Program-made: the position numbers and the translations under genes
Shown here: piece after piece, positions 34,714 through 64,000 of the stretch
Numbering within the stretch: position 1 is the first letter of the stretch
Layout: every line of letters begins with the position of its first letter
Assembly (NCBI GenBank): GCA_029945445.1
Contig: JAQSCO010000060.1
Span: 1 to 64,000 of the forward strand
Reading direction: 5' to 3'
DNA length: 64,000 bases
From: Lacunisphaera sp.
Lineage (GTDB): Bacteria; Verrucomicrobiota; Verrucomicrobiia; Opitutales; Opitutaceae
The notes under the pieces: model-generated
The model's database searches: none
Told to the model about the DNA's origin: nothing
Seen by the model: the letters and a program-made list of their open reading frames with translations, nothing else

Positions 34714-37700
34714 TCAGAACTTCATGCTGGCGGTGAGTTCATACGTGCGCGGCTGCACATACATCTTCTGCAAAATGTGCGGAATGCCGTTGCCGTAGTC
34801 GACGGCGTTGTTGGGATAGTATTCGGCCTGATTCAGGAGGTTTCGCACCCGGAGCGAAACCAACCAATTCGTCGTTTTGTCCAGCAGCTTGGTTTTCCAG
34901 GAATAACTGACGAAGGCATCCGTGGTCAGAGATTCGGCGCCCGTGAACGGGTTCTTCGTGTCAAAGTTGCCGGCCACTTCCGGAAAGCCGATGGTGGGGG
35001 CATCACGCCAACGCGCACTGGCGCCCACGCGCGTGCCTTTCAACGGGCCTTGGTCCCAGGCGTAGCTTCCGACCACATTCACCAGCCAATTGTTACCGCG
35101 AATCCGGGAGCCCCCGACCTGGGCTTCATGGTAATTCAAGCGACGTTCCATGCCGGCCATATATTCGCCGATGGTCCGGGTGGCATTGAACACGGGGTTG
35201 GCGATGAGCGACGTGATGGCCGTATCATTACGATACGGCAGGACGTATTTATCATACCACGGCCGGGTGTATTTGTAGGTGCTGCCCAACGTCGCATCAT
35301 TGTATGAGACGTTGCACATCAGGCGCAGCTGTTTCGTGGGATTAAGCGTGACCTCCAGCTCATAGCCTTCCGACGCATCCGACTCCAAGTCCGTCCAAAG
35401 GCCATTGCTCGTCTGGTATTCGGTGAAGCGTTTGGCCCCGGTGACCTTGGTGCCAAATCCGTTGAGGACCATGCCCTCGAGGTATCGCTCGACATAGCCG
35501 TTCACGCGGGCCATTTCGATGCCGATCGCTCCATCCCGGAGCGGGTTGGAGATCCGGTTCTCGGCTGCGTTGTGGTAATAATTGAGCTTCAAGATCACCC
35601 GATCGTCGAAGAAGAAGCCGCGCAACCCTAAATCGTAACCGTTGCCTTCTTGATTGGGTAACGATTCGTTGTTGATGTTATAGGCGCTGCCGGCGGCGCC
35701 CACGGTGTTCGTGGACTTGTTGGCGAAGGCATCCAGCCACTTCGTGACCTTGACCACGACACCGACGTTTGTGTTGGTGACCTCCGTGGTTTTCGCCGGG
35801 GCGAACGTTCCCTGTCCCTTCCCGCCGTTCAACAGGGTGACCGGAATCACGTCAAAGAGGAAATTATGGGATGAGATGGTATCCTGGCGGATACCCCCCG
35901 TGAGGATCAACCGCCGGGAGAACAGCTCCCACTGGCCAATGGCGGCCTTGGATTCGGTGGTTTCGGGCGCATAGCTGTTGTTCAGGCGCGCCACCATCGC
36001 CGCCGTGATGGCGGGGACGACACCACCCGCAACCGCGGGGTTCGCCGCCTGGTTGATCTTGCTGAGCTCATTGATGTTCAAGGAGGGGAAGTTGACCGGC
36101 TGCCCCGGCAACAGATAGTAGCGCCGTCTTATCAGGTTTTCCGTGCCGGCCGCGCTCCCGGCGATGGTGCCGTCCGCCCGCACCGACGTCGTGGTCGCTT
36201 CCTCGTTCTGCGTGTTGAAAGTGTCATCAGTGCGATAGTAATAGAAAGCAACGGCGGTGAACTTGCCGAGATCGAAGCCCTTGACGGGCTCAATGCGACT
36301 CAGGTCGACTTGATGGGTCAGGGTTGCGCGCCACTGTTTCGTGATTGAGTCGCGGGTTTGCAGCAAGGCACCTGACTCGAGATAGGGCACACCGAAATAG
36401 GGATTGAGCGGTTTGGTGGGATCCGGGTTGTTCGACGCCAGCTGGGTCGGGAGATAGTAATTGGGGTCGATGAAGACCTCGTAGTCGCCCCGTTGCATCG
36501 GCTGCCAGTCCTCGGTATTCGATTTCTCGTAGACGCCAGCCAGTTCCAGGTAGGTTTTTTCCAGCACCTGCTGCTGCCACGAGGCCGAGTATTTATCGAA
36601 GGTGATGTCATTATGCTCTGCCGGTCCAGTGACCATGGTGTCCAACGGGAAGTTCACCCCCGGCACGACGGAAATTTTCGAGAGGCTGGTCTGATTTTGG
36701 GCCACGCCGTTGACGACGATCTCCGAACCCCGGGATTTGTTTTTCCAGTTCTGCACGCCCAGCTGCGGGTCATTCATGATATACACGAGATAGTTGGCAG
36801 TCGAAAATCCCTGGGTAACCCCGGTGATGATATTGCGGGCGGCATTGCGCACCGTCGCGGACGTGGAAGTGTTCAGGAGGTTGTCGATCGTATTCGCTTT
36901 TTGTAACGGGGTCAGCGGAGAGTTTAGCCAAGCGGAAACGCTGTCATAGGCGATGTAGGGCCGGGGCAGGGATTCGTCGATTCTGCCGGTTTCCGCATTG
37001 ACGTTGATGGTCGCGCCTTTGAAAGGCTGAATCGTCAGATTCAGATAGGCCGAGTTGCGCCGGCTATACTGCAAATCGCGCGGGGTGCGTTGATCGGTGG
37101 ACAGGCCGGCGAAGCGCACCGCCAGTTTCTTGGGGATGAGAACCTGATTGATATCCACACTGGCGCGTCTCGTGCCTTCCGAATCGAAGCGCACTTCCAG
37201 CCCATAGCTGTTGGCATTGAATCTTCCCACCTTGTTGGTCGCATCAAGACCTCCACCCACGGAACCCAAACCAAAGAGCAGGGAATTGGGTCCCCGGGAC
37301 TGGGTCACCGTCTCGGTGTTGTAGCTGTCCACCTTGATGCGGCTGGTGAAAAAATTGTTGGTCAGTGTATTGGAGCGGAACCCACGCACCATGTAGGCGG
37401 TGCTGTTGCGCGACCCGTTACCTTCCTGATCCGAGGAGTCCGTCTTGAATCCCTGGGTGCTGGGCAGAAACTCCAGGGCTTCCTCGTAGTTCACCGCGCC
37501 GATGTCCTTCATGAATTCCTCGGTGAGAATCGTGATCGGGTTCGCCAGATCGCGGACCTGGGAGCGTAATTGCGTCCCCGACAAAGTCTCCGACGCGTAA
37601 TACCCGCTGGTGGACTCAGGGGTTACGACGAAGGGATTTAATACGATCGTTTCCGGCGCCGTTTGGGCGGGGGTCGTTTGGGCGAGTGCAGGCAGCGACA

Positions 37701-37764
37701 GGATGGACAAACTCACCCCGATCAGGAGGTGAAGACAAGGGATGCGTGATCGTTTGCTTTTCAT
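34714..37764 (-). CDS. TonB-dependent outer-membrane receptor
   Basis: This 1016-residue protein has a signal peptide (HLLIGVSLSILSLPALAQ). A TonB-box-like stretch near VLNPFVVTPES follows, then a plug domain (about 60-210: GTQLRSQVRDLANPITILTEEF, AYMVRGFRS, SRGPNSLLFGLGSVGG) and a 22-strand-type barrel ending in aromatic F (YELTASMKF). Such receptors import large or scarce ligands with energy from TonB. Standing at the downstream end of the sulfatase/GH92 cluster, it is the likely importer of the glycan fragments. There is no SusD-like partner, as is usual in Verrucomicrobiota. An 18-bp palindrome lies 185 bp upstream, shared with two other gaps in the cluster. Confidence 0.9.
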   Translation of the reverse strand: MKSKRSRIPCLHLLIGVSLSILSLPALAQTTPAQTAPETIVLNPFVVTPESTSGYYASETLSGTQLRSQVRDLANPITILTEEFMKDIGAVNYEEALEFLPSTQGFKTDSSDQEGNGSRNSTAYMVRGFRSNTLTNNFFTSRIKVDSYNTETVTQSRGPNSLLFGLGSVGGGLDATNKVGRFNANSYGLEVRFDSEGTRRASVDINQVLIPKKLAVRFAGLSTDQRTPRDLQYSRRNSAYLNLTIQPFKGATINVNAETGRIDESLPRPYIAYDSVSAWLNSPLTPLQKANTIDNLLNTSTSATVRNAARNIITGVTQGFSTANYLVYIMNDPQLGVQNWKNKSRGSEIVVNGVAQNQTSLSKISVVPGVNFPLDTMVTGPAEHNDITFDKYSASWQQQVLEKTYLELAGVYEKSNTEDWQPMQRGDYEVFIDPNYYLPTQLASNNPDPTKPLNPYFGVPYLESGALLQTRDSITKQWRATLTHQVDLSRIEPVKGFDLGKFTAVAFYYYRTDDTFNTQNEEATTTSVRADGTIAGSAAGTENLIRRRYYLLPGQPVNFPSLNINELSKINQAANPAVAGGVVPAITAAMVARLNNSYAPETTESKAAIGQWELFSRRLILTGGIRQDTISSHNFLFDVIPVTLLNGGKGQGTFAPAKTTEVTNTNVGVVVKVTKWLDAFANKSTNTVGAAGSAYNINNESLPNQEGNGYDLGLRGFFFDDRVILKLNYYHNAAENRISNPLRDGAIGIEMARVNGYVERYLEGMVLNGFGTKVTGAKRFTEYQTSNGLWTDLESDASEGYELEVTLNPTKQLRLMCNVSYNDATLGSTYKYTRPWYDKYVLPYRNDTAITSLIANPVFNATRTIGEYMAGMERRLNYHEAQVGGSRIRGNNWLVNVVGSYAWDQGPLKGTRVGASARWRDAPTIGFPEVAGNFDTKNPFTGAESLTTDAFVSYSWKTKLLDKTTNWLVSLRVRNLLNQAEYYPNNAVDYGNGIPHILQKMYVQPRTYELTASMKF

Positions 37765-37948
37765 GGTTTGGGGGTATTTCGGTTCTAGGTGGGGGGGTGA
37801 AAAGTCCGGCGGAGAGCGACAAAATCAGGTTGAGGCGGGGGCGTTTCAGGGGTGGAGGGTAGGGTGAGACTTGGCGGGCACGGGGTTTCCTAGGCGGGGA
37901 CTCACGAGCAATCTCAGCGTAGTGTCGCATGTTTCCCAACTTGCAGGT

Positions 37949-37966
37949 ATCCCCTTTTAAGGGGAT
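37949..37966. promoter_or_regulatory. Shared 18-bp palindrome upstream of the TonB receptor
   Basis: ATCCCCTTTTAAGGGGAT is a perfect palindrome 185 bp upstream of the receptor start. Related sites are at 54996-55012, 55029-55046 and 58067-58084, all upstream of minus-strand genes of the glycan cluster. It is the probable binding site of a cluster regulator not encoded in this window. Confidence 0.65.
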
Positions 37967-38060
37967 GGGCGGTCGGCGGAAACGTCTCTATGATTCACGG
38001 GACGATGTTGGCTTGTCCGGCAAAAATCTGGCTCAAGATGGCGGTGCGGATGACCATAAT

Positions 38061-38265: not shown

Positions 38266-39597
38266 TCAATCGATTTTCTGTCTTGAGGCGGCCGGCCGCG
38301 GCGAGGTTGGAACTGGTGAGGGGATCGGGAGCAAGTCGGGGAGGTCATCGTTGGCCGGAATTTCCCCCCGGATGACTTTGCCGGCCGCGCCGGTGAGGCG
38401 GAGATAGTAGTCGCTCGGCAGGCCCTCGTAGGTGACGAATTGGGCGCCTTCGCCGACGGGCGGTTCGTTGGTGACCTTGAAAATAGCGGTGCCTTCGTCG
38501 ACCTCGTCAAACATGGCGACGTAGAGCATTTCGGCGCCGATGCGCTTGGCGGCCACTACCTGCGACCAGAAGAACCGGCCTTGCAGACGGGGAATCGCGT
38601 TGAGCGGGGCACCCTTCATGTTGAACCAGCTGAAGCCAGGGAAGGCGACGGGCAGGTAGTCGATACCCTGCGCTTTGCACCACGTCAGGTCGGGCTGCCA
38701 GGTTTCCTGCGCATGCTGGGTGGCCGCTTCAGGGGTGCGGTAGCGGCCGGGCGTCCAGGGGGAGATCACATCGGCGAGCTTCAGCACCTCGTGCAGCAGC
38801 GGATCGGTGATGGTGTCGCGGCCTTGTTCGCGCCAGTAGCTGGGGATGCCGAGCATGATCGAGACGCCGCCGCTGGCCGGATCGTTCTTCAGGAAGGTGA
38901 GAATCTTGAGCCAGTCCGCGAGGGTGGGCCGAGGCTTGGCGTCATTGTTGCCGCAGCCCCAGAGCGCCACCAGTGGCTTGCCGCGGTGGTGCAAGTAGGC
39001 GGGGTCGCTGGTCAGGCGCGTATCCTGCAGGAGTTTTTTCCAGTCGGCGATCAATACCTCGGGCTGGCCGGGCGCAAAGCCGCTGAGGTCATACATGAGC
39101 GCGTAGGTGCGGCCGGAGCGCTTGGCGCCGGCGCGGACGTTTTCGAGGACGGCATTGTTGACGGCGAGGGAAGTGCCGCGGGTCAGCGAGCCGGCAAAGC
39201 GCTGCAGGAAAACGCCGTCGATGCCATGCTCCTGCATCCACTGGAAGTGGCGCAACACGGTGGGTCGGCGATAGGAGCTGAAGACCTCGGCTGGGGTGCC
39301 GTCGGCGTGGACAAAATCAGTGGGGAATCGCTCGTCCGGGCCGAGTTCGGACATATCGGGCCACAGGTCGACGCGGATGGAACCGGGGCCGGGCCGCTTG
39401 CCGCTGGGGCTCCAGTGGTTGTAGCCGCGGCCCGCGCCATCGCCCTCGGCGTTGAACCAGCCTTGGTAGCCGACCATCACTTTGCCGGTGAGGGTGGTGG
39501 GGTTGACGCGCACCACGCCGGGTCCGGCGCAACCCGTGACCAGCACGGCGAGGAGCGTGCCAAAGCACAAGGTTCTGAGGGTTGTCGTGATTTTCAT
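38266..39597 (-). CDS. GH71/99-like lipoprotein, paralog A
   Basis: About 443 residues with a lipoprotein signal (LLAVLVTGC). The catalytic TIM-barrel region has VMVGYQGWF, FQWMQEHGIDGVFLQRF, YALMYDLSG, GKPLVALWG, PGFSWFNM and YVAMFDEVDEGTAIF, the pattern of the glycoside hydrolase family 71/99-like group. GH99 enzymes are endo-acting alpha-mannosidases/mannanases and GH71 enzymes are alpha-1,3-glucanases. The Asp/Glu of FDEVDEG are candidates for catalysis. The start follows the sulfatase stop by 34 bases, so they are probably co-transcribed. A Pro/Ser-rich tail follows the catalytic domain. Two paralogs lie at 41993 and 55142. Confidence 0.75.
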   Translation of the reverse strand: MKITTTLRTLCFGTLLAVLVTGCAGPGVVRVNPTTLTGKVMVGYQGWFNAEGDGAGRGYNHWSPSGKRPGPGSIRVDLWPDMSELGPDERFPTDFVHADGTPAEVFSSYRRPTVLRHFQWMQEHGIDGVFLQRFAGSLTRGTSLAVNNAVLENVRAGAKRSGRTYALMYDLSGFAPGQPEVLIADWKKLLQDTRLTSDPAYLHHRGKPLVALWGCGNNDAKPRPTLADWLKILTFLKNDPASGGVSIMLGIPSYWREQGRDTITDPLLHEVLKLADVISPWTPGRYRTPEAATQHAQETWQPDLTWCKAQGIDYLPVAFPGFSWFNMKGAPLNAIPRLQGRFFWSQVVAAKRIGAEMLYVAMFDEVDEGTAIFKVTNEPPVGEGAQFVTYEGLPSDYYLRLTGAAGKVIRGEIPANDDLPDLLPIPSPVPTSPRPAASRQKID

Positions 39598-39631
39598 GGA
39601 AGTAGTCTGGGTCCGAGGTTGGGGGCGGGAT

Positions 39632-41050
39632 TCAGGCGGCCGGCACCGGCGCTGCGTCCAAGACGATTTCGTCGTAGAGTTTGCGCAGGCGCGCCACGAT
39701 TTCGGGATGGACGGCGGCCACGTCGTGTTGTTCGCCGGGGTCGGCCTGCAGGTCAAAAAGCTGCAGGGGGGCGGGCGCAGCTCCCGTGGTGAGGCCGGGA
39801 TAATCGCCCGGCTGATACTGCTCGAAAGGGGCGAGGATCGTCACGCCGTCGGGGGCGCGCGGGTCGATCCAGCGCTCGCCGGGTTCCCGCAGCTTGATCC
39901 GCGGATCCGGCGCGGGGAGAATGTGCAGCTTCCAGCGGGCATCGCGGACCGTGGCCAGGCGCGGCCCGAGCTGGCCGATAATCACCTCGTGCGGGCTGGG
40001 GGCGGCCGAGGTGAACTGGGGCATGAGGTCGCGGCCGTCGATCACGCGGTCCGCGGGCGGCGCGATGGCCGCGGCTTTCAAGGTCGTGGCGAAGAGGTCC
40101 ATCATCACGGCGGGTGAGTGGTTGACGTGGCCGGCGGGAATTTTTCCCGGCCAGCGCGCGATGCAGGGTACGCGGTAGCCGCCCTCATAGGAACTGGCCT
40201 TCATCCCGCGCAGACCGCCCGTGCTGCCGCCGTAGTAGGGACCGTTGTCGCTGGTGAAAATCACGAGGGTTTTCTCCTCAAGACCAAGCTCGCGGAGGGT
40301 CTGCAGGATCTGGCCCACGCTCCCGTCGAGCTCGGCCATCACGTCGCCATAGAGGCCAGCGCCGGATTTCTTGTAGAAAGCCTCGGACGCGGCCAGGGGC
40401 TTGTGCGGCATCGCGTGGGCGAGGTAGAGGAAAAAGCCCCGCGCTTGGTTGCGCCTGATGAAATCGATCGCGCGGGCGGTGTAGCGCTGGGTGACGTTGG
40501 CCTGCACGAGGGGATATTCGACGGGCTGGTCGCCCTCGAGCAGTTGCACGGGGCGCATGTCGTTCGAATAGGGAATGCCAAAATATTCGTCAAAACCGCG
40601 ATGCGTCGGCAGCCACTCCGGCCGGGCGTGGCCGAGGTGCCACTTGCCGACCATGCCGGTGGCGTAGCCCGCGCGTTGGAAAAGCTGGGCTAGCGTGATT
40701 TCGCGCTCCGGCAGGTGGAGGGTGTTTTCCTCGCGGCGCTGACCATCCGGCGCCGGGTTGCCCGTCAGGCCGTGGCGAAAGGGATAGCGGCCGGTGAGCA
40801 GCGAAGCCCGCGTCGGCGCGCAATACGCCGCCGGACAGTTGAACTGCGTGAGGCGCGCCCCCGCCGCGGCGAGGCGATCGATGTTCGGCGTCTTGAAATT
40901 CGGGTGGCCGTAACAGCTGAGGTCACCGTAGCCGAGGTCGTCGGCGAGGATGATGACCACGTTGGTCCGGTCAGGCGGAGCGGAGTCGCCGGCGTGGAGT
41001 AGGCCCGAGGCGGCCAGGAACAGGAGGGAAAGGAATGCGGGGCGCTTCAT
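39632..41050 (-). CDS. Sulfatase S1 (arylsulfatase A-like)
   Basis: The 472-residue exported enzyme hydrolyses sulfate esters. A signal peptide (LSLLFLAASGLLHA) precedes the metal-binding NVVIILADDLGYGDLSCYG. The formylglycine motif CAPTR has its Cys at about residue 77, followed by ASLLTGRYPFRHG. GKWHLGH and FTSDNGPYYGG carry the other metal and substrate residues. The Cys needs conversion to formylglycine; no activating enzyme is in the window. The start overlaps the metallophosphoesterase stop by four bases, and a GH71/99-like gene follows, so sulfate removal and chain cleavage are coupled in expression. Confidence 0.9.
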   Translation of the reverse strand: MKRPAFLSLLFLAASGLLHAGDSAPPDRTNVVIILADDLGYGDLSCYGHPNFKTPNIDRLAAAGARLTQFNCPAAYCAPTRASLLTGRYPFRHGLTGNPAPDGQRREENTLHLPEREITLAQLFQRAGYATGMVGKWHLGHARPEWLPTHRGFDEYFGIPYSNDMRPVQLLEGDQPVEYPLVQANVTQRYTARAIDFIRRNQARGFFLYLAHAMPHKPLAASEAFYKKSGAGLYGDVMAELDGSVGQILQTLRELGLEEKTLVIFTSDNGPYYGGSTGGLRGMKASSYEGGYRVPCIARWPGKIPAGHVNHSPAVMMDLFATTLKAAAIAPPADRVIDGRDLMPQFTSAAPSPHEVIIGQLGPRLATVRDARWKLHILPAPDPRIKLREPGERWIDPRAPDGVTILAPFEQYQPGDYPGLTTGAAPAPLQLFDLQADPGEQHDVAAVHPEIVARLRKLYDEIVLDAAPVPAA

Positions 41051-41949
41051 GGTGATTTGGGATTTTTGGTCGCGGCTTCCTTCGCGGCGGGCGGGTTTAC
41101 GTCGATGCGCACGGGGAGTTCGCCGAGTTCATAGTAACGGTGCTCGATCGTATCGTCGCGGACGATCGCAACGCGGAAGCCGGATTTCGCGCCGCCGAGC
41201 GGCTGGCCGACGGGACCGGTGGTGATCGCCTGGAGGGAGCCGTCGGTCGCCTCCGCGTTGCGGTGATAGTGACCGCAGAAAAGATAGCGCACGCCGAACT
41301 CGCGGAAGAGGGCGAGGAGCGCGGCGCGGCGCACCAGCGGGATGTTGAAATACTGGTCGGGCTCACTGGCGCTTTGCAGGAACCACGGGTGGTGCTGAAA
41401 GACGACAATGTGCCGGGCGCCGCCGTCCTGAGCGCGCTGCAGCTCGGCGCGCAGCCAGCGATCCTGCTCGGCGAGCAACTCCGGCGCCTGCGCCGGCGAG
41501 TGAATGAGCGTGGAGTTGAGCACGATGCCCGTGAGTCCGGCGTGTTGAAAGGTGTAGCGGTCCGGCCCGAAGGTTTCCACATAGGCGGCGATCGTCGCCG
41601 GCGTCGGGACGTTTCCGATATCGTGGTTGCCGGCGAGATTGTAGACGGGTATCGCGGGATCGATCTTCGCCAGGAGGCGACGGTAGCCGGCGATTTGCGC
41701 GGGGTCGCCGGGCAGGTTGACGAGATCGCCGGTCACGATGACGAAGGCGGGGTGCAGGCGGTTGACCGCGGTGACGACGAACTCGAGATTGGCGGCCTCC
41801 TGCGCGAAGTCGGCATTGGCCGTGAACATGCCCAGCTGCGGGTCGCTGAGCTGGATAAAAAAGAACGGCTCGGCGGCGGACGCCGCGGTCGGCAGGACGG
41901 GAGCGAGCGAAACCAGCAAGAGGGCGGCGAGCCTGACGAGGGGATTCAT
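41047..41949 (-). CDS. Exported calcineurin-like metallophosphoesterase
   Basis: This 300-residue protein has a signal peptide (LAALLLVSLAPVLPTAASA) and the two-metal phosphoesterase motifs: SDPQLG (replacing the usual DxH), VTGDLVN, LAGNHD, VVFQHHP and CGHYHRN. It would hydrolyse a phosphate mono- or diester in the periplasm. Within a glycan cluster a phosphorylated sugar is a reasonable substrate, but this is inference. Its ATGA overlap with sulfatase S1 and 43-base distance from the upstream GH71/99-like gene place it inside one operon. Gln in place of the His of the first motif is common in exported members. Confidence 0.85.
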   Translation of the reverse strand: MNPLVRLAALLLVSLAPVLPTAASAAEPFFFIQLSDPQLGMFTANADFAQEAANLEFVVTAVNRLHPAFVIVTGDLVNLPGDPAQIAGYRRLLAKIDPAIPVYNLAGNHDIGNVPTPATIAAYVETFGPDRYTFQHAGLTGIVLNSTLIHSPAQAPELLAEQDRWLRAELQRAQDGGARHIVVFQHHPWFLQSASEPDQYFNIPLVRRAALLALFREFGVRYLFCGHYHRNAEATDGSLQAITTGPVGQPLGGAKSGFRVAIVRDDTIEHRYYELGELPVRIDVNPPAAKEAATKNPKSP

Positions 41950-43532: not shown

Positions 43533-45824
43533 TCAAGGCGCGTTCCAGAAGACCGTTTTTCCGGCCCCCATCTCGAACACCAGTTCGTGACCGGCCATGA
43601 GGTCGGCATACGTGATGAAGGGCGTCTTCAGCGGCTCGCCATCCAAGGTGACACGCTGCACGTAAGGATGATTCGCCGCTCCGTTCTGCATCCGCACGAC
43701 GAAGGGCTGCCGGCCCGGCAATGCAATGCGGGCCTCGTCAAACAAGGGACGGCCGAGTGAGAAATTGGGGTCGCCGGGAGCCACCTGATAAATGCCCAGG
43801 GCACTCAGCACAAACCACGCGGACATCTGGCCGGCATCTTCGTTGCCGATCAGGCCGGCGGGCGTGGCCAGATAGAACTCGGTCATGATCTGGTGGACGA
43901 TTTCCGCGGTGCGCCAGGGTTGCTCGGCCCAGTTGAAGAGATAGGCGATATGATGGCTCGGCTCGTTGCCGTGGGCGTATTGGCCGATCAAGCCGGTGAT
44001 GTCGCCGGAGATTTCCTTGCCGGTGAGGGCGGAACTGGTCGTGAACAATTCATTCAATTTCGCGGCAAACGGCTCCCGGCCGCCAAACAACGCCATCAGT
44101 CCGGGCACATCGTGCGGCACAAACCACGTCCACTGCCAGGCGTTGCCCTCGACGTATTCGCCGCTCTGGTGGTTTGAGTCGGTGGGTGTGAACGGTTCCA
44201 GCCATTGGCCATCCATTTTTTTGGCGCGCATGAAGCCGGTCTGGGGATCGAAATACTGGCGGTAGTAGCCGGCGCGCTTGAAATACTCCGTCGCAATTTC
44301 CTCGCGGCCCAGGCGCTTGGCCAGGGTGGCGATGGTCCAGTCGTCGTAAGCGAACTCCAGCGCCTTGGAGACAGACTTGCCTTCGAGATCGGCCGGAACA
44401 AACCCCTTGGTGGCGTTGTAAAGCTTGGCCTTCGGCATCAGCTTCGCGCGGACATCGTCCGAGTTGTAGGGAATGGGTTTGTTATCGTCGTATTGCGACG
44501 CAAACAGGACAGCTGCCATGGCCTGATTGAGGTCATAGTCACGCAGTCCCTTCACGTAAGCATCCACGATCACCGGCACGGCGTGATAACCAATCATGCA
44601 GCCCGTGTAGTTGGCGGCCAATTCCCACATGGGCAGGATGCCGCCTTCATCGTGCTTGCGGAGCAGCGAGCGAATCCACGCCTGATCCAGCTCTGGATTG
44701 AGGATGGTGTAGAGCGGATGTTGCGCGCGAAAGGTGTCCCACAACGAGAATACGGTGTAGTTCGTGTAGCTGGTGTCCTGATGAATCTTCTGGTCCATGC
44801 CGCGATAACGCCCGTCCACATCGCTCGCCAGGTTGGGGCAGATGGCGGTGTGATACAGCGCGGTGGCAAATATTTTCTGCTGGTCGGGCGTTCCGCCTTT
44901 AACCTGAATCCGGTTCAACGGTTCCGCCCAGGCCGCGGCCGCTTGCTTCACCACGCCGTCGAAATCCCATGCGGGCACTTCCGCCGTCAGATTCCTCTTC
45001 GCGCCAGCGCCATCCACCGGGCTGAGGCCGACTTTGACCAGCACCGTCTCGGCGTCCGCCGTGGCGAAGTTGAGCCGCACCTTGACGTTCTTGCCGGTGA
45101 CGGATGACTTCCCTTGCTGCAAAACGTCGTTCACAAAAAGTTCGGCGGTGAACGGCTGGGAAAGCTCGGCGTGAAAATAGATCCAGCGGTTTTGCGCCCA
45201 GCCGCGCACATGCCGCCAGCCGGCGATCTCGCGATCATTGAGAACTTCGATCCCCGCCGCCAGAATCTCACGATTCTGGATGCTGTGCTTCAGGTCCACG
45301 ATCACGCCCGCCTTCGTTGCCTTCGGGAAAGAATAGCGGTGCACGCCCGCGCGCGGGGTCGCCGTTAACTCCGCCTTGATCTGAAAGCGGTCCAGCAGCA
45401 CGCGATAGTAGCCCGGGGTTGCGAACTGGTTTTTTTTGTCGAAGGCGGACCGATACCCGTAATCCGGTTTCTGGGGAGTGCCCGAGCTGATGCTGATGTC
45501 GCCCGTGAATGGCATCATGAGCACGTCGCCGTAATCGCCGATGCCCGTGCCACTGAGATGCGTGTGGCTGAAGCCCCAGATCTCCGTGTCGGCATCGTAG
45601 TAGCCGCCGCACGCATCCCAGCCGCTGGTGCGAGTATCCGGGCTGAGTTGCACCATGCCAAACGGCGTGGTCGCCCCGGGGAACGTGTGGCCATGATACC
45701 CGGTGCCAATAAAGGGGTCAACCTGCTGGAGAATGCGGTCAGCCGCGCTGGTCGACTGGAGTGTCACGGTGCTCATGGCCAGCAGCAGGCCGAGTGTGCG
45801 GGTCCATCTGCGATTCATGTTCAT
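43533..45824 (-). CDS. GH92 alpha-mannosidase A
   Basis: About 763 residues with a signal peptide (TLGLLLAMSTVTLQSTSAA). The N-terminal GH92 hallmark is VDPFIGTGYHGHTFPGATTP followed by FGMVQLSPD. In the catalytic (alpha/alpha)6 domain GNEPSHHIAYLFNW holds the catalytic acid Glu, and GNEDAGQMSAWFVLSALG the base-type acidic residues and the calcium site. GH92 enzymes are calcium-dependent exo-alpha-mannosidases that invert configuration and trim alpha-mannan and N-glycans. The frame extends to a GTG at 45911 overlapping the sulfatase S2 stop (GTGA), but the signal peptide supports ATG 45824 or 45818. Confidence 0.9.
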   Translation of the reverse strand: MNMNRRWTRTLGLLLAMSTVTLQSTSAADRILQQVDPFIGTGYHGHTFPGATTPFGMVQLSPDTRTSGWDACGGYYDADTEIWGFSHTHLSGTGIGDYGDVLMMPFTGDISISSGTPQKPDYGYRSAFDKKNQFATPGYYRVLLDRFQIKAELTATPRAGVHRYSFPKATKAGVIVDLKHSIQNREILAAGIEVLNDREIAGWRHVRGWAQNRWIYFHAELSQPFTAELFVNDVLQQGKSSVTGKNVKVRLNFATADAETVLVKVGLSPVDGAGAKRNLTAEVPAWDFDGVVKQAAAAWAEPLNRIQVKGGTPDQQKIFATALYHTAICPNLASDVDGRYRGMDQKIHQDTSYTNYTVFSLWDTFRAQHPLYTILNPELDQAWIRSLLRKHDEGGILPMWELAANYTGCMIGYHAVPVIVDAYVKGLRDYDLNQAMAAVLFASQYDDNKPIPYNSDDVRAKLMPKAKLYNATKGFVPADLEGKSVSKALEFAYDDWTIATLAKRLGREEIATEYFKRAGYYRQYFDPQTGFMRAKKMDGQWLEPFTPTDSNHQSGEYVEGNAWQWTWFVPHDVPGLMALFGGREPFAAKLNELFTTSSALTGKEISGDITGLIGQYAHGNEPSHHIAYLFNWAEQPWRTAEIVHQIMTEFYLATPAGLIGNEDAGQMSAWFVLSALGIYQVAPGDPNFSLGRPLFDEARIALPGRQPFVVRMQNGAANHPYVQRVTLDGEPLKTPFITYADLMAGHELVFEMGAGKTVFWNAP

Positions 45825-51653: not shown

Positions 51654-51660
51654 GGGAAGA

Positions 51661-53220: not shown

Positions 53221-54855
53221 TCAGATTTCGGTGTGGCGCAGGTTGGCCAGGAGCGGATTAGCGGTGCGGACCATCCAGGCCTCGAGTTCCGCCTTGAGCG
53301 CCTGCGCTTGCGGCAGCGCACGCGCTTTGTCGGGATTGCGCCCGATCAGGTTGTTCATCTCCAGCGGATCTGTTTTTAGGTTGTAGAGCGCATGGACCGG
53401 CAGGCGGGGCGGGCGGTTCGCGCCCACGGCATACACGATCAGTTTCCAATCCCCCTGGCGGATCATGAACGGACCGCCGTTGGCGACCACCCCCCAGGCC
53501 GACACGGCGGCTTCACGTGGATCGGTCCGGCCCTCGATTAACGGCCGCAGGCTGCGGCCTTCGTTGGCCGGAATCGGCTGGCCGGCGTAATCGAGAATGG
53601 TGGCGAAATAGTCGACGTGGGAGACGGGCCGGGCCACGTGCCCTCCGGCGGGGATGGTGCCCGGCAAGCGCAGGATCAGCGGGATGTGGGCCGAGCCCTC
53701 GAACATGATGTTCTTCGAGTCCATGCCGTGGTCACCGAGCATCTCCCCGTGGTCGCTGGTGAATACCACCAGCGTGTTTTCGCGGAGCCCCTTGCGGTCG
53801 AGCGTGGCGAGCAGCTTGCCCACCCACTCGTCGGCCTGGGCAATCATCGCGTAATAGACCGCGGTCAGTTCCTGGACTCGGCGCGGGTCGCGATAACGGT
53901 CAGCGATGGCCGGGTTCATCCGCGGCGGGTGGGGCGAGTTGGCATGAGGATCGTCGATGCTAAGCGGCACCGGCATGTCCTGGGGCGCATACTGGCTGAA
54001 ATAGGGATCCGGCACGACAAACGGCGGATGCGGCGGACCGATCGAGCAGGTCAGGGAGAAGGGAACATTCGGGTCCATCCGCTCCAGTGCGGCCAAAGCC
54101 TCTTGCCCTTCAAAGGCCGCGAGCGAGGCATCGGGTGGGATAAGCAATCGGCCGATGATGCCCCCTTGGCCGGCGAGGGGATCTCCGCCGGCCTTGTCCT
54201 GGCGCTTGGCATTGCCCGCCGCGGCGGGCAACGGGTCCTTCGCCGGGCCCGTGACCGGCTCATGGTGCCAGTCGATCGCATACGGGACGTAGGGACGCAG
54301 GCTCATCGTGTCGATCAACTCGCCGGGGCGCGCAGCCCGGGCGGGCGAGAGGCGATCAAGGTAGCGGCGGAAGGCCTCGGTGTTGCTCTCGATCGCCACG
54401 CCGGCCGCCTTGTTGACGGGTTTGACCGGGACGGAATAGGTGCGGGCGAACTGGTAGGGCACATGCCATTTGCCGTAATACTCGGTGCGGTAGCCGGCGC
54501 GCGAAAGCACGGAATCGAAGGTGGGGACGTCAGGCACATCCGGATTCGTGAGGTCGCCGTTGCCGAGGACCTTGGTGGTGTAATTGGAGAGTCCGGTGAG
54601 GATCACGGTGCGCGCCGGCACGCAGACCGGGCAGGCGGAATAGGCGTTGTCGAAGATCGTGCCTTCGCGCGCCAGCCGGTCGAGGTTGGGCGTCTTGAGC
54701 ACCGGGTTGCCCGCGCAGCCGAGCGCATCCCAGCGCTGCTGGTCGGTCATGATGAACAGAACATTGACCGGTCTTGATCCGGCCGGGGCCGCGTGACCCG
54801 AAGCCGTGAAGAGCGAGGCGCAGGCCATCGCGAAAGGGAGGAGTTTCTGGCTCAT
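53221..54855 (-). CDS. Sulfatase S3
   Basis: About 544 residues with a signal peptide (LLPFAMACASLFTASGHA). The motifs are VNVLFIMTDQQRWDALGCAG, CVPAR (Cys at about residue 78), GKWHVPY and FTSDHGEMLGDHGM. The DQQRWDAL and GDHGM forms resemble choline-sulfatase and N-sulfoglucosamine-type sulfatases. ATG 54855 is chosen since it begins the signal peptide; the frame continues far upstream without protein-like features. It is the first gene after a gap holding two copies of the shared palindrome, so it probably starts a transcription unit running through DUF1080, oxidoreductase, permease and kinase. Confidence 0.85.
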   Translation of the reverse strand: MSQKLLPFAMACASLFTASGHAAPAGSRPVNVLFIMTDQQRWDALGCAGNPVLKTPNLDRLAREGTIFDNAYSACPVCVPARTVILTGLSNYTTKVLGNGDLTNPDVPDVPTFDSVLSRAGYRTEYYGKWHVPYQFARTYSVPVKPVNKAAGVAIESNTEAFRRYLDRLSPARAARPGELIDTMSLRPYVPYAIDWHHEPVTGPAKDPLPAAAGNAKRQDKAGGDPLAGQGGIIGRLLIPPDASLAAFEGQEALAALERMDPNVPFSLTCSIGPPHPPFVVPDPYFSQYAPQDMPVPLSIDDPHANSPHPPRMNPAIADRYRDPRRVQELTAVYYAMIAQADEWVGKLLATLDRKGLRENTLVVFTSDHGEMLGDHGMDSKNIMFEGSAHIPLILRLPGTIPAGGHVARPVSHVDYFATILDYAGQPIPANEGRSLRPLIEGRTDPREAAVSAWGVVANGGPFMIRQGDWKLIVYAVGANRPPRLPVHALYNLKTDPLEMNNLIGRNPDKARALPQAQALKAELEAWMVRTANPLLANLRHTEI

Positions 54856-55141: not shown

Positions 55142-56515
55142 TCATCGGTTGGCCGTGCTGGTGCGCAGCCATTGCCGAATCTCTCCCGTGAGACGCAGGT
55201 AATAATCGCTGGGCACGCCCTCCTCATGCAGGAAGGGGCTCTCCCCCCCGGGCGGATTCTGACTGGTCTTCATGACGGCGGTGCCCTCGTCGATTTCATC
55301 GAACATGGCCACGTAGAGCATCGTCGCGCCACCCGCGAGCGTGCCCGCGGCCAGCGAGCGGAAAAACTCGCCCCGCTGGCGCGGGATGGCGTCGAAGGCC
55401 GCCTCGTTGCCGCGAGACCGCTGGAGATTATGCCAGCTGAAGCCCGGATAGATCACAGGCAGGTAACTGAGTCCACGGGACCCCGTCCAGGCGAGGTCGG
55501 CGGTGACCATGGTTTCACTCGTGCGCCGGGCGTCCTCCGGTGTCTTCAGGCGGCCGACGGCCCAGGGACTGAGGACATCCGCCAGCGCGAGCACGCGCAG
55601 CAATTCCGGATCGGCCACCGCATCGTTGGTTTGCTCGCGCCAGCGATAGGGCACACCCAGCACAACGGTGTTGCCGCCATACACGGGATCGTCCTTGAGC
55701 CAGCGGATGAGGCGCTCGCATTCGGCGAGGGTGTATTGTCGCCCATCCTTGAAGCCGACGCCCCAGAGCGCCACGACGGGCTTGCCGGCGTGACGCTGTA
55801 ATCGCGGGTCGTCCCGGATGCGGCCGAGGTCCACCATCCGGCGCCAGTCGTCCATGACGGCCTTTTCGATCGTGCCGCTCCGCGAGCCGGAGAGGTCATA
55901 CATCAATGCCCAGGTCCGGCCGTGGCGCGCGGCCCCGGTGCGGACGCCGCGAAACACTGCATTGCGCATCGCCGCCTGCGGCATCTGGCTGAGCGTGGTG
56001 ACGAAACGTTGCAGAAAAACTCCATCGATCCCATACTCCTCCATCCAGCGGAAATGGCGGTCGATCGTGTCCGGGTGACGGGCGGTGGTCACTTCGGCCA
56101 CGGAGCCGTCGGCGAAGCGGAACTCCGTCGGATAGCGCTCGCCAAGCCCGGCCTCGGTGAGGTCAGGCCACATGTCGATGACCGCGGAGCCCGGGGAAAA
56201 CCGGCGCGTGACGCGGGCGCTGCGTTGGGACGAGTTGACCCCGTAGTGCGTCCAGCCGATTTCCGAACCGTCGCCCTCGGCCACGGCCCAGCCCTGGTAT
56301 CCCGCCATGACCTTGCCCGAGAGGCTGTCAGGGTTGATCGCCCCGTCGGGCAGAGGCGCCGGCGGGGGCGGCGCGAGCAGCGCATGGGTGCCTTTCCAGT
56401 TTGTCGGGAGCGACTGGTGCCACGGTTGCGTCGTGCAGCTGGTGAGGAGCAACAGCAGCGCAACGGCCCAACCGAGTGGACGGCGGTGCACGGCATGACT
56501 CGGCTGGGATCTCAT
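55142..56515 (-). CDS. GH71/99-like lipoprotein, paralog C
   Basis: The 457-residue protein has a lipoprotein signal (LLLLLTSC). Blocks shared with paralogs A and B are VMAGYQGW, FRWMEEYGIDGVFLQRF, WALMYDLSG, GKPVVALWG, PGFSWHNL and YVAMFDEIDEGTAVM. A Pro-rich stretch after the lipid anchor (LLAPPPPAPLPDG) is a probable linker to the membrane. It probably cleaves alpha-linked glycan chains. The start overlaps the sulfatase S4 stop by four bases (ATGA), repeating the sulfatase then GH71/99-like order seen at 39597-41050. Confidence 0.75.
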   Translation of the reverse strand: MRSQPSHAVHRRPLGWAVALLLLLTSCTTQPWHQSLPTNWKGTHALLAPPPPAPLPDGAINPDSLSGKVMAGYQGWAVAEGDGSEIGWTHYGVNSSQRSARVTRRFSPGSAVIDMWPDLTEAGLGERYPTEFRFADGSVAEVTTARHPDTIDRHFRWMEEYGIDGVFLQRFVTTLSQMPQAAMRNAVFRGVRTGAARHGRTWALMYDLSGSRSGTIEKAVMDDWRRMVDLGRIRDDPRLQRHAGKPVVALWGVGFKDGRQYTLAECERLIRWLKDDPVYGGNTVVLGVPYRWREQTNDAVADPELLRVLALADVLSPWAVGRLKTPEDARRTSETMVTADLAWTGSRGLSYLPVIYPGFSWHNLQRSRGNEAAFDAIPRQRGEFFRSLAAGTLAGGATMLYVAMFDEIDEGTAVMKTSQNPPGGESPFLHEEGVPSDYYLRLTGEIRQWLRTSTANR

Positions 56516-57924
56516 GACTTCCTTGGTTCAGACGGGAGCAGTGCCTTCAGGCGAGCGATGACGGTGGTGTTCGTGGGTTCGGCGGCGACGTTGCGTGTTT
56601 CCTCGGGATCGCGGGTTTCGTCGTAGAGTTCGGCGGTTCCATCGGTCCATTCGGTATAGCGCCAGTCGGGCGTGCGCACGGTCCGGCCGCGCGCATCGCC
56701 GTGCACGACGATCGTCGTGGCGGCGCCCTTGCCGGGGCGGGCGGGATCGTCGAGTTGCGGGCGCAGGCTGCGGCCGGGCAGCACGCCCGGCGGCGGCAGG
56801 CCGACGTAGTCCAGCACGCTGGGGAACAGATCGACGAGTTCGACCGGCGTCGGACACACGCGGGCGGCGCCCGAGGCGGCGGCGCCGGTCTGCGAAGCCG
56901 GCGGGCGCACGAGGAGCGGCACGCGGCAGCTTCGCTCAAAGAGGGTATCCTTGTTCCACCACGCGCGTTCCCCGAGGTGATAGCCGTTGTCCCCCATGAA
57001 AATCACCAGCGTGTTGTCCCGCGCTCCCAGCCGATCGACGGCGGCGAGCACGCGGCCGACCTGCGCGTCCATGAAGCTCACGCCCGCGCAATAGGCGCGC
57101 AGGAATTCCAGGCGGTCGCGGTCGGTGAAGGCGGCGAAGGCCTGTTTGAACGCGCCCGATGGAATGGCGAGCGGCGGAGCCGGGGTTTGGTCCGCCGGAT
57201 CGCGTTTCAGGGTGAGGGAGCCCTCCGGATAGAGATCGAAATATTTCTGGGGGGAGATGAACGGATCGTGCGGCCGGTGAAAGCCCACGGCGATGAACCA
57301 CGGCCGGGCCCCGGCCTGCTCCATCGTGGCTATCGCGCGGGTGGCGGATTGGCCGTCCGGCGTCGCCTCATCGGCGCAATCGACCGCGGCCCATTCGCAC
57401 CACTTGAGCGCGCCGCCGGTCAGGTTGCGCCCGGCGACTATCGGGCCGGGCACCCGCTCCGCCGAGTCGTAGAAGGCCTCGTCCCAGGATACGGCGCGGT
57501 CCAGCCAGACGGCGCGTTCCTCCTCGGTGCGCCCGATGGTGTGGAAGACCTTGCCGAACGCGGCCGTATACCAGCCGTGACGGCGCAGATACTGCGGCCA
57601 GGTGATAACGGCGGGCATCACCTCGCGCAATCGCGTGCGGTTGTTGACCACGCCGATGGTTTCGGGCCGCAGCCCGGTAAGAAAAGAGGCGCGGCTCGGA
57701 TTGCACACCGGGTATTGCGCGTAGGCCCGGTCGAAACGCACTGCCCCCGCGGCAAAGGCATCGAGATGGGGGGTGCGAACCTGCCGGTTGCCATAGCTGC
57801 CCACGCTGTCCCGCAGGTCATCAGAGATGATCAGGAGAATATTTGGCGGGCGCGCGGGCGCATCGGTGGAGGCTGCAGCAGCCAGCGCCGCCGAAGTAAG
57901 CAATAGCGAAAAGCGGGCCAGCAT
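56512..57924 (-). CDS. Sulfatase S4 (iduronate-2-sulfatase-like)
   Basis: About 470 residues with a signal peptide (LARFSLLLTSAALAAAA). PNILLIISDDLRDSVGSYG, CNPSR (Cys at about residue 74) with ASFLTGLRPETIGV, FGKVFHT and MGDNGYHLGE follow the iduronate-2-sulfatase-like pattern; many marine enzymes of this type act on algal sulfated glycans, so the name says little about substrate. An upstream ATG at 57954 is possible. A palindrome at 58067-58084 lies about 113-143 bp upstream, making this the likely first gene of a unit with GH71/99-like paralog C. Confidence 0.85.
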   Translation of the reverse strand: MLARFSLLLTSAALAAAASTDAPARPPNILLIISDDLRDSVGSYGNRQVRTPHLDAFAAGAVRFDRAYAQYPVCNPSRASFLTGLRPETIGVVNNRTRLREVMPAVITWPQYLRRHGWYTAAFGKVFHTIGRTEEERAVWLDRAVSWDEAFYDSAERVPGPIVAGRNLTGGALKWCEWAAVDCADEATPDGQSATRAIATMEQAGARPWFIAVGFHRPHDPFISPQKYFDLYPEGSLTLKRDPADQTPAPPLAIPSGAFKQAFAAFTDRDRLEFLRAYCAGVSFMDAQVGRVLAAVDRLGARDNTLVIFMGDNGYHLGERAWWNKDTLFERSCRVPLLVRPPASQTGAAASGAARVCPTPVELVDLFPSVLDYVGLPPPGVLPGRSLRPQLDDPARPGKGAATTIVVHGDARGRTVRTPDWRYTEWTDGTAELYDETRDPEETRNVAAEPTNTTVIARLKALLPSEPRKS

Positions 57925-58202: not shown

Positions 58203-59087
58203 TCAGCGCCACTCCAGCACCGCGGTCACGGGGTAATGATCGGAGGGAAACCGCCCGTCGCGCGCTGCGCGGTCGATCTCGCTGGCGCGCGCGACGAAGT
58301 GATCGGTGTGAAAAATGAAATCGATCCGGGACCCGAGCACCTTCCCCTTGAAGCCATGGGCGCTGGCCTCATCGGACTGGCGTGACGGATGCACTTCGCG
58401 ATAGGAGTCGATCCAGCGGATCGCATCCGGCGCCGCGGGCCGCACGAGCACGGCGTAGGCCGGATTATCCTCGTTGATATTGAGGTCGCCTGTCAGCAGG
58501 GCCGGGGTGCCGGCAGCCAGCGCGGCGACGCGCTGCGCGATCAGCTTGCTCGCCTCCTGCCGGGCAATTTTTCCGACATGGTCAAAATGCGTGTTGGCGT
58601 AGAGGAAATCACGCCCGGTCGCGCGATCCGTCAACCGCACCCAGGTGCAGATACGCGTGAGCGCGGCATCCCAGGACTTGCTGCCCGGCACGTCGGGCGT
58701 TTCCGAGAGCCAGAAGTCCCCGTGCGGCCCGGCGGCAAACCGCGCTTTCTTGAAACCGAGCAGGGCCCACTCGCCGCTGCGCTGCCCGTCGTTGCGGGCC
58801 ACGCCGACGAAATCGTAGTCGGGCATCGCCGCCGTGATGGCGTCATGCTGGTCCGCGAGCACCTCCTGAAAGCCGATCAGGTCCGGCGCGAAGCGCGCGA
58901 TGAGCGCGAAGAATTGCTCGGTGCGCCGCGGCCACGCGTTGTCGCCATCCTGGGCCGCCGAGTTGCGGACATTGAACGACATGAGCCGGAGCGGAGCGAC
59001 CGGGTCGGCCGCTACGGTGAAAGGGACGGCGAGGGCAACGGCGAGGGCGAGGCAGACACGCCGCACGAGGAGGGAGAGCGAAGTCAT
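58203..59087 (-). CDS. Endonuclease/exonuclease/phosphatase-fold protein, exported
   Basis: This 294-residue protein has a signal peptide (LALAVALAVPFTVAA). The fold's motifs are all there: LMSFNVRN, IGFQEVL (metal Glu), YANTHFDH, LLTGDLNINEDN and PSDHYPV with the catalytic His. The fold includes DNases, sphingomyelinases and sugar or lipid phosphatases. Export and position between GH92 mannosidase B and sulfatase S4 make a glycan phosphatase or phosphodiesterase more plausible than a nuclease, but this is inference. It begins 13 bases after the GH92 gene, so they are in one operon. Confidence 0.85.
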   Translation of the reverse strand: MTSLSLLVRRVCLALAVALAVPFTVAADPVAPLRLMSFNVRNSAAQDGDNAWPRRTEQFFALIARFAPDLIGFQEVLADQHDAITAAMPDYDFVGVARNDGQRSGEWALLGFKKARFAAGPHGDFWLSETPDVPGSKSWDAALTRICTWVRLTDRATGRDFLYANTHFDHVGKIARQEASKLIAQRVAALAAGTPALLTGDLNINEDNPAYAVLVRPAAPDAIRWIDSYREVHPSRQSDEASAHGFKGKVLGSRIDFIFHTDHFVARASEIDRAARDGRFPSDHYPVTAVLEWR

Positions 59088-59100
59088 AGAGGGAGTAGGT

Positions 59101-61338: not shown

Positions 61339-61405
61339 AAGTGGAGCGGGTGCCGCGCGGGATTAACTTCGGCCAAGAGGAGCAGCGTATGGGAAAACCG
61401 CATGG

Positions 61406-62953: not shown

Positions 62954-63081
62954 GTGAGCGGAGGGAAGGAGGACAGGGTGAGAGGGCGATGCGGGTGGGT
63001 GGCAACGCGCCGATGATCTCCGCGGAGATCCGGTGTCGACGAGGTAACCATCATCATAATTATGGGCGACTTCGCTTGGGC

Positions 63082-63738
63082 CTACAACGTGAACTTCACG
63101 CCGATGACCGGGGTGAGATCGAGTTTGAAGCTGGCGGCGGGCTCGAACTGGCGGCCTTGGGCGAAGAGGGAAAAACTTTTCGTCACGCGGTAGCGCAGCT
63201 CCGCTTCGACGTAGATTTGTTTCTGGCGGAAAATCCAGTCACCGAAGCCGTAGTCGAAGACGAGGAATCCAGATAATTTTGGGGTAAACGCCTGTGAAAT
63301 GAAAATCGCGGCTTGGGCGTCATGGTCGCGGGTGGCGATCGGATAGAGCTTGAGCGCGAAAGCGTTTCCTTGGCCGAAGGAGGTATTCCACACGAGGCCG
63401 AGACGTCCGATGCCGGCGTAGTCGGTGCCGCCGTTGGCCTCGAAGGTCAGATTCCACTTTTTCAACTTTGGATCGAGGGGCCCGAGCGACTGCATGAAAC
63501 GGATCTCTCCATAATAGGTGCTAAGATCAAATTTGTTGACCCGCTTGCCGTAGAAATCGACGAACCCGTAGGTCGCCAGCGAGGGATTGAAGTTGCCGCC
63601 GCCTTCGGCGCGGGCGGTGCCAATGGCGTAGTCGGTGTAGTAACCGGGCTGGAGCTCGAGCCACGCGGCGGTGGCAGAGAAAGCGGCGCCGAGCGCGGCG
63701 AGGAAGAAGACGGAGCGGCACAAGGTGGTGAGGGACAT
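63082..63738 (-). CDS. Small outer-membrane beta-barrel protein (Tsx/DUF5020-like)
   Basis: The 218 residues start with a signal peptide (SVFFLAALGAAFSATA). The rest alternates polar and hydrophobic residues as in a 10-12-strand barrel (GFVDFYGKRVNKF, WNLTFEANGGTDYAGIGRLG, IYVEAELRYRVTKSFSLFAQ) and closes with an aromatic-containing strand, VIGVKFTL. It resembles nucleoside-channel Tsx-like and DUF5020 proteins. It could be a diffusion channel for monosaccharides or nucleoside-like solutes. It begins 11 bases after the previous gene and 128 bases before sulfatase S5. Confidence 0.65.
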   Translation of the reverse strand: MSLTTLCRSVFFLAALGAAFSATAAWLELQPGYYTDYAIGTARAEGGGNFNPSLATYGFVDFYGKRVNKFDLSTYYGEIRFMQSLGPLDPKLKKWNLTFEANGGTDYAGIGRLGLVWNTSFGQGNAFALKLYPIATRDHDAQAAIFISQAFTPKLSGFLVFDYGFGDWIFRQKQIYVEAELRYRVTKSFSLFAQGRQFEPAASFKLDLTPVIGVKFTL

Positions 63739-63749
63739 GGGAGCAAATG

Positions 63750-64000
63750 CTATTTGGCGGGAGAGGCGTTTGCTGCCGTCGCTTTGCGCCAGGCGGCGAT
63801 CGATCGCGGAAGGTACTCGCGGTAGTCTTCGCCATAATTCGTGTTGATCTTGAAGTTGATAAAGGCGACGTGTGCGCGGATGCCGGCGGCGTCGGTCAAC
63901 CGCACGAGACTGGCCCAGTCGAATGCGCCCCGGTCGAGCGGCTGGAGGGTCGAGCGGTCCATCGTGCGCGGCGAAGTCATGTCCACCTTCGCATCGGCGC
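63750..64000 (-). CDS. C-terminal part of a gene cut by the window edge
   Basis: The minus-strand frame is open from the right edge to a TAA at 63750. The visible 83 residues include DWASLVRLTDAAGIRAHVAFI, then KINTNYGEDYREYLPRSIAAW. The layout looks like the last strand and helix of a TIM-barrel protein, perhaps of the sugar phosphate isomerase/epimerase kind, but the family is not recognised with confidence. The GTG at 63986 is unlikely to be the true start because the frame continues upstream. The gene is 11 bases from the outer-membrane protein gene and so in the same operon. Confidence 0.55.
   Translation of the reverse strand, partial: ADAKVDMTSPRTMDRSTLQPLDRGAFDWASLVRLTDAAGIRAHVAFINFKINTNYGEDYREYLPRSIAAWRKATAANASPAK

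What the first reader, a model, noticed from the sequence alone, without database searches (positions are those of the whole stretch)
34714..64000. A 29-kb polysaccharide utilisation locus for a sulfated alpha-mannose glycan
Seen: all genes on one strand; five intact Cys-type sulfatases, two GH92 and three GH71/99-like proteins, two exported phosphohydrolases, a FucP-type permease, a PfkB kinase, a Tat oxidoreductase, a double DUF1080 protein, an outer-membrane barrel and one TonB-dependent receptor. Known: GH92 enzymes are alpha-mannosidases, GH99 enzymes cut alpha-mannans internally, and sulfated alpha-mannans occur in marine algae. Inference: desulfation, internal cleavage and exo-trimming of a sulfated, perhaps phosphorylated, alpha-mannan, with no SusD-like protein. 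The set appears unusual for a single locus in Verrucomicrobiota.
Basis: partly seen in the sequence, partly recalled or inferred. Interest (0 to 1): 0.85.

Follow-up and report, generated by a model that had tools for sequence, protein, structure and literature searches.

The report
Sulfated-mannan digestion locus in Verrucomicrobiota
This stretch of a Verrucomicrobiota genome holds most of a 27-gene cluster that is predicted to strip sulfate from, cut up and import a mannose-rich sulfated sugar polymer, likely from algae, with an enzyme set that resembles one known from marine Bacteroidota but has no SusD-type binding protein and carries additional genes.

The parts
34714..37764 (-). TonB-dependent receptor, likely importer of oligosaccharides; no SusD partner found
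   Evidence: PF07715 Plug 35.5 bits; near GH99a at 68-91% identity in 8 loci
38266..39597 (-). GH99a: GH99-related predicted endo-alpha-mannanase, lipobox-like VTGC ending at residue 23
39632..41050 (-). S1a sulfatase, often directly upstream of GH99a in relatives
   Evidence: PF00884 203.6 bits; CAPTR; a copy >=60% identical directly upstream of GH99a in 9 of 17 relatives with GH99a >=69%
41047..41949 (-). calcineurin-like phosphohydrolase with signal peptide (by eye)
   Evidence: PF00149 51.6 bits; 88% copy before S1a-GH99a in L010 and L119
41993..43303 (-). GH99b: GH99-related paralogue
   Evidence: 45.5% to GH99a; FDEIDE at 371; E 2.4e-169 to profile A1
43533..45824 (-). GH92a predicted exo-alpha-mannosidase
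   Evidence: PF07971 574 bits, PF17678 289 bits
45908..47461 (-). S1b sulfatase, nearest solved relatives include 5G2V and 7LHA/7LJ2 (S1_11 references of PMC13063451)
   Evidence: CSPSR
47511..48662 (-). Khk/PfkB sugar kinase that travels with the locus
   Evidence: PF25270 113 bits; >=81% orthologue only in the 4 of 21 genus genomes that carry the locus
48673..50157 (-). gluP/FucP-type sugar permease
   Evidence: TIGR01272 250.9 bits, cut-off 202.6; TIGR00885 fucP below cut-off
50250..51653 (-). Gfo/Idh/MocA oxidoreductase with Tat-type signal, predicted glycoside 3-dehydrogenase
   Evidence: NF058561 129.7 bits, cut-off 750; SRR-type motif
51661..53097 (-). double PF06439 (DUF1080) protein, predicted 3-keto-glycoside hydrolase
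   Evidence: PF06439 265 bits, 2 stretches
53221..54855 (-). S1c sulfatase
   Evidence: PF00884 171.8 bits; CVPAR; nearest solved: 7oz8
55142..56515 (-). GH99c: GH99-related paralogue, lipobox-like LTSC
   Evidence: 48% to GH99a; FDEIDE at 405
56512..57924 (-). S1d sulfatase
   Evidence: PF00884 150 bits; CNPSR; nearest solved 6hhm, 5fql
58203..59087 (-). endonuclease/exonuclease/phosphatase-family phosphohydrolase with signal peptide (by eye)
   Evidence: PF03372 55.2 bits
59101..61338 (-). GH92b predicted exo-alpha-mannosidase (diverged N-terminal domain)
   Evidence: PF07971 460.7 bits, PF17678 58.4 bits
61406..62953 (-). S1e sulfatase
   Evidence: PF00884 146.6 bits; CAPSR; nearest solved 6hhm
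63082..63738 (-). 218-aa putative outer-membrane barrel
   Evidence: no Pfam match at 1e-3; barrel reading by eye
63750..64000 (-). part of an AP_endonuc_2 TIM-barrel protein (to contig 64,724; signal peptide by eye); the locus goes on to contig 77,201: ManA-like 64727-65818 -, MFS 65815-67068 -, GH99d 67166-68536 -, GH92c 68552-70807 -, GHx 71020-72300 -, GH92d 72582-74825 +, histidine kinase 74833-76578 +, response regulator 76596-77201 +
   Evidence: PF01261 38.8 bits and the other families; coordinates

Best explanation
This is a 42.5-kb, 27-gene locus that is predicted to degrade and import a sulfated, alpha-mannose-rich polysaccharide. Shown here: gene content and strand, the modelled GH99 fold of GH99a with both catalytic glutamates, intact sulfatase motifs, confinement of all GH92 and GH99-like genes of the genome to this locus, and recurrence of parts of the kit in related genera. 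Inferred steps: (1) sulfatases, matured by an FGE-type enzyme, open the polymer; (2) the lipobox-bearing GH99-related enzymes (GH99a, c) cut internal alpha-mannosidic bonds at the cell surface; (3) the TonB-dependent receptor, without SusD, takes up oligosaccharides; (4) in the periplasm further sulfatases (one of them S1_11-like), four GH92 exo-alpha-mannosidases and the unclassified GHx trim them, while the Gfo/Idh/MocA, DUF1080 and TIM-barrel trio may remove residues by 3-oxidation and elimination or hydrolysis where plain hydrolysis is blocked; (5) the hexose enters through the gluP/FucP-type permease and is phosphorylated by the co-inherited Khk-type kinase or a ROK kinase, with the ManA-like isomerase feeding fructose-6-phosphate; (6) the divergent histidine kinase and LuxR-type regulator switch the locus on.
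For: Families. GH99 fold and catalytic pair (GH99a modelled; pair present in all four). All 4 GH92 and all 4 GH99-like genes of the genome in the locus. FGE-family proteins present (10 stretches, 9 over cut-off; the family is wider than FGE). ROK kinases (3 stretches). Congener G016 (two contigs) has a related locus with GHx, GH92b, GH99b, TBDR, S1d, GH99a, S1a, GH92a, S1b, KHK, FucP, GH92d, HK, RR, DUF1080. Kinase >=81% only in the 4 of 21 genus genomes with the locus (Fisher 1.7e-4, relatedness not corrected). Other genera: G163 has on one 39-kb contig GH99b-EEP-MPE and sulfatase-GHx-GH92 runs with a FucP-type gene, and a second cluster with GHx, FucP, GH99c, GH92, DUF1080 and sulfatases; G128 has two GH99-like genes, GH92, DUF1080, Gfo and several sulfatases; G200 has GHx beside GH99a and sulfatases. 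Same logic proven in Polaribacter/Ochrovirga: S1_51 + GH195 (GH99-related) + GH92 + S1_11; GH92- and sulfatase-rich PULs with a GH99-related gene in Flavobacteriia.
Against: Over 200 genomes of the family GH99-like genes (30 genomes) and GH92 genes (48) co-occur in 8, close to the 7.2 expected (Fisher 0.82), so GH99-like enzymes also serve elsewhere; 61 of 63 more distant loci (L025, L027-L088) show no GH92 beside the GH99-like gene. In the 57 nearest genomes the association is modest (both 5, GH99-like only 4, GH92 only 7; Fisher 0.015). PF16317 cut-off not reached. No sulfatase here is close to OpSulf1 9FVT (S1_51): 77-78 bits and far down the lists for S1a and S1b, not among the best 60 shown for the other three. 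GHx has no match in congener G017. The ManA-like protein is below its model's cut-off and was not found in the G016 and G017 stretches read. 3-dehydrogenase model far below cut-off. Substrate and linkage are untested, and no activity or expression was measured.
Confidence: 0.62

Rival explanations
1. The target is not a mannan but a sulfated heteropolysaccharide (algal or cyanobacterial) in which alpha-mannose is a side chain, and the GH99-related enzymes cut another alpha-linkage of it.
For: GH99-like genes are common without GH92 in the family, and 7,336 of 7,999 scored candidates matched the profile, so the family as a whole may have another substrate; the second MFS permease is nearest, below cut-off, to a D-galactonate transporter model, hinting at an acidic sugar; the G016 locus holds more sulfatase-like genes than this one.
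Confidence: 0.2
2. The locus degrades high-mannose N-glycans or phospho/sulfo-mannosylated glycoproteins rather than a polymer.
For: GH99 and GH92 enzymes act on eukaryotic high-mannose glycans (MANEA among the fold matches); two phosphohydrolases; PMC10877868 counts GH92 among host-glycan genes of MAGs, Verrucomicrobiota included.
Against: No GH18, GH85, GH20 or GH29 match among the 27 genes; five sulfatases; same combination proven on a sulfated mannan in Bacteroidota.
Confidence: 0.13
3. The cluster is an assemblage of generic exported hydrolases without one substrate, in a sulfatase-rich genome.
For: 27 sulfatase stretches across the genome; no family-wide co-occurrence of GH92 and GH99-like genes.
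Against: All GH92 and GH99-like genes of the genome confined to it; conserved order in congeners and recurrence of the kit in other genera; kinase co-inheritance; own regulator pair.
Confidence: 0.05

Closest known systems
Sulfated alpha-mannan PUL of Polaribacter sp. Hel1_33_78 / Ochrovirga pacifica (Krull et al. 2026, PMC13063451; abstract, sections 5 and 8 and passages read)
   Same: GH99-related endo-enzyme, GH92 exo-mannosidase, S1 sulfatases including an S1_11-like one; sulfatase and GH99-related enzyme side by side (fused in Polaribacter)
   Different: Here a TonB receptor and no SusD found, no close S1_51 sulfatase, four GH99-like and four GH92 genes, GHx, 3-keto-glycoside-type genes, own kinase and permease, Verrucomicrobiota host whose nearest relatives have no marine site in their titles
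Type A GH92/sulfatase-rich PULs of North Sea Flavobacteriia (Kappelmann et al. 2018, PMC6298971; passages read)
   Same: Multiple GH92, sulfatases, a gene distantly related to GH99
   Different: Those have SusC/D and GH2, GH3 and GH88 genes; no match to these GH families was found here
GH99 endo-alpha-mannanases BxGH99 / human MANEA
   Different: About 15-17% identity; below Pfam cut-off
3-keto-glycoside pathway (DUF1080 hydrolase BT2157, PMC9007349; Agrobacterium GlycDH/OGE operon, PMC10628242; passages read)
   Same: Gfo/Idh/MocA, DUF1080 and AP_endonuc_2-type TIM-barrel genes in one place
   Different: Placed in a mannosidase locus; all three carry export signals (by eye or motif); dehydrogenase far below the known model's cut-off; none tested

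Membership tests
SusCD-type sulfated alpha-mannan PUL | several GH92 genes | tested here: met
   4 in locus, 4 in genome
SusCD-type sulfated alpha-mannan PUL | several S1 sulfatases with intact CxPxR | tested here: met
   5
SusCD-type sulfated alpha-mannan PUL | GH99-related endo-enzyme gene | tested here: met
   (relation; endo-activity not tested)
SusCD-type sulfated alpha-mannan PUL | SusC/SusD pair | tested here: not met
   TonB receptor present, no PF07980 in genome (one model)
SusCD-type sulfated alpha-mannan PUL | S1_51 endo-sulfatase like OpSulf1 (9FVT) | tested here: inconclusive
   no close match (best 60 of 82-88 shown each); SulfAtlas models not on hand
SusCD-type sulfated alpha-mannan PUL | S1_11 mannose-6-sulfate sulfatase | tested here: inconclusive
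   S1b scores 239.5 bits with 5G2V and 223.9 with 7LHA; subfamily assignment not run
GH99 (PF16317) | score over the curated cut-off | tested here: not met
   22.8 bits for GH99a, cut-off 33; no match for b, c, d
GH99 (PF16317) | GH99 barrel fold and catalytic Glu pair | tested here: met
   GH99a model; both glutamates invariant in 32 of 32 aligned sequences and aligned with GH99
GH195 | sequence relation to PbSulf1-GH195/OpGH195 | not testable with these tools
   no GH195 sequence was at hand
GH92 | catalytic domain over cut-off | tested here: met
   GH92d nearest solved 6f8z and 2wvy, named alpha-1,2-mannosidases
3-keto-glycoside pathway | glycoside 3-dehydrogenase model NF058561 over cut-off | tested here: not met
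   129.7 bits, cut-off 750
3-keto-glycoside pathway | PF06439 domain and AP_endonuc_2 TIM barrel in the same locus | tested here: met
Type I phosphomannose isomerase | TIGR00218 over cut-off | tested here: not met
   56.8 bits, cut-off 116.2
known (alpha/alpha)6 GH family for GHx | assignment to one GH family | tested here: inconclusive

The most novel reading that the evidence does not exclude
Opitutaceae of inland waters have evolved their own SusD-free machine for a sulfated alpha-mannan that joins two chemistries: GH99-related/GH92 hydrolysis plus exported 3-oxidation and elimination, with GHx as the founder of a new mannan-active glycosidase family; this would mean that sulfated alpha-mannan of the diatom type is a carbon source outside the sea.
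Probability: 0.22. Interest if true: 0.75.

Novelty: new variant of a known kind. Interest (0 to 1): 0.55.

Why it matters
The one proven sulfated alpha-mannan cascade that I found is from marine Bacteroidota (PMC13063451). In the listings (title and start of abstract; eight papers opened, mostly in passages) I saw no such locus described for Verrucomicrobiota, though PMC10877868 mentions GH92 genes in Verrucomicrobiota MAGs as host-glycan genes; this is a limited search of open papers. A SusD-free version with four GH99-related enzymes gives test targets for how another phylum handles such a polymer, gives a telling context for a very large GH99-related family of which no characterised member came up in my searches, and for GHx, and predicts sulfated mannans in inland waters.
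Full report
What is there. The window is positions 1-64,000 of a 558-kb contig in a 4.17-Mb, 66-contig genome. The same run goes on past the window: a TIM-barrel protein (AP_endonuc_2) with a signal peptide by eye, a ManA-like isomerase, a second MFS permease, a fourth GH99-like protein, a third GH92 and GHx, and then, divergent, a fourth GH92, a histidine kinase and a LuxR-type response regulator, up to contig position 77,201. That makes 24 consecutive minus-strand genes and three plus-strand genes; 20 of the 26 gaps are under 130 bases.

Is it more than chance. The genome has four GH92 and four GH99-like genes, and all eight lie between 38.3 and 74.7 kb of this contig. Of 27 sulfatase stretches in the genome six, from five genes, are here.

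GH92. All four pass the model. GH92b and GH92d form a pair (45% identical) apart from a and c (27-32%). Only GH92d was compared with the PDB: nearest are 6f8z and 2wvy, named alpha-1,2-mannosidases.

Sulfatases. S1b has as nearest solved relatives a set that includes 5G2V and 7LHA/7LJ2, the S1_11 structures with which Krull et al. compare their mannose-6-sulfate sulfatase. S1d and S1e are nearest to 6hhm, then to iduronate- and choline-sulfatases, S1c to 7oz8, S1a to GalNAc-6-sulfatase and arylsulfatase A types. OpSulf1, the S1_51 enzyme (PDB 9FVT), is not close to any. FGE-family proteins that could mature sulfatases exist.

Conservation. In the genus 4 of 21 genomes have GH99-like genes; these four have three or four GH92 each, and 2 of the other 17 have GH92. 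The kinase has an orthologue of 81% or more in exactly those four and no match in the other 17. G016, two contigs, has a related locus in largely the same order. G017 has the contig length and gene position of the Lacunisphaera MAG004 record, so the window's genome very likely belongs to that genus (inference). A sulfatase 60% or more identical to S1a stands directly before GH99a in 9 of the 17 relatives whose GH99a is 69% or more identical; of the other eight at least one (L022) is cut by its contig end. In other genera parts of the kit recur in other orders: G163, G128, G200. Against this, over 200 genomes of the family GH99-like (30) and GH92 (48) genes co-occur in only 8, as chance gives (Fisher 0.82), though in 6 of these 8 they lie within 40 kb. 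In the 57 nearest genomes there is a modest association (Fisher 0.015).

GHx. This 426-aa protein has a modelled (alpha/alpha)6 fold (model of an 89% identical relative, pLDDT 84.2) nearest to alkaline/neutral invertases, GH116, GH63 and phosphorylase domains but no sequence match in the PDB. Strong matches (over 340 bits, the next being 246) in the 200 family genomes are in G000, G016, G163 and G200 only; sulfatases are near in each place, and GH92 or GH99-like genes too except on the 6-kb contig C770 of G200. It is missing from G017, which has most of the rest of the kit. Other relatives come from Opitutae and Bacteroidota. It is a candidate new glycosidase family of this kit.

3-keto-glycoside genes. 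The Gfo/Idh/MocA protein with its Tat-type signal is a distant relative of the glycoside 3-dehydrogenase family, the DUF1080 protein belongs to the domain family of the 3-ketotrehalose hydrolase BT2157, and the TIM-barrel protein is of the sugar-phosphate-isomerase type to which the O-glycoside beta-eliminase of Agrobacterium was annotated. In G017 the first two are 87% and 76% identical; in G016 the second is 75%, the first only 28%, and the third 36%. A route by 3-oxidation is a prediction.

Compared with what is known. Krull et al. (PMC13063451, abstract, sections 5 and 8 and passages read) proved that a sulfatase, a GH99-related enzyme (GH195), a GH92 and a second sulfatase turn diatom 6-sulfo-alpha-1,3-mannan into mannose and sulfate; 18 other putative enzymes of that locus appeared inactive on it, a warning against reading every gene of such a locus into one pathway. 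Kappelmann et al. (PMC6298971, passages read) describe GH92- and sulfatase-rich loci with a GH99-related gene. The present locus works by the same predicted logic; it is not a SusCD-type PUL, since no SusD was found in the genome (one model). The Verrucomicrobiota paper PMC8857213 (passages read) treats fucose-type polymers and has no occurrence of 'mannan'. PMC10877868, PMC9213526, PMC9723552, PMC10628242 and PMC9007349 were seen in passages only.

Verdict. Confirmed observation, longer than described; interpretation likely in its main line, untested in every step; new variant of a known kind.

Noticed in passing
L003 (contig C60 299-318.9 kb): A second run with five sulfatases, an MFS permease and a TonB-receptor-like protein (by eye) on the minus strand, probably another polysaccharide locus.
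   Followed up: no
L005 and L006 (contig C1 1-40 kb): Stretch with several sulfatases and proteins that look by eye like GH29 fucosidases; perhaps a fucan-type locus.
   Followed up: no
window 30656-33838: 1,060-aa protein with sortilin/BNR-type repeats (PF15902) directly after the end of the locus on the same strand; role unknown.
   Followed up: partly
loci L025 and L027-L088: The GH99-like protein stays 52-61% identical to GH99a across records titled Planctomycetes, Armatimonadetes, Lentisphaerae, Sumerlaeota and Verrucomicrobia, with a GH92 nearby in only 2 (L055, L062) of these 63 loci: a widely shared function of unknown substrate.
   Followed up: partly
L119 (G017:C141): G017 carries a further phosphohydrolase-S1a-GH99a-S1d-TonB receptor block (88, 86, 75, 57 and 73% identical) besides the genes on its contigs C159 and C164.
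   Followed up: partly
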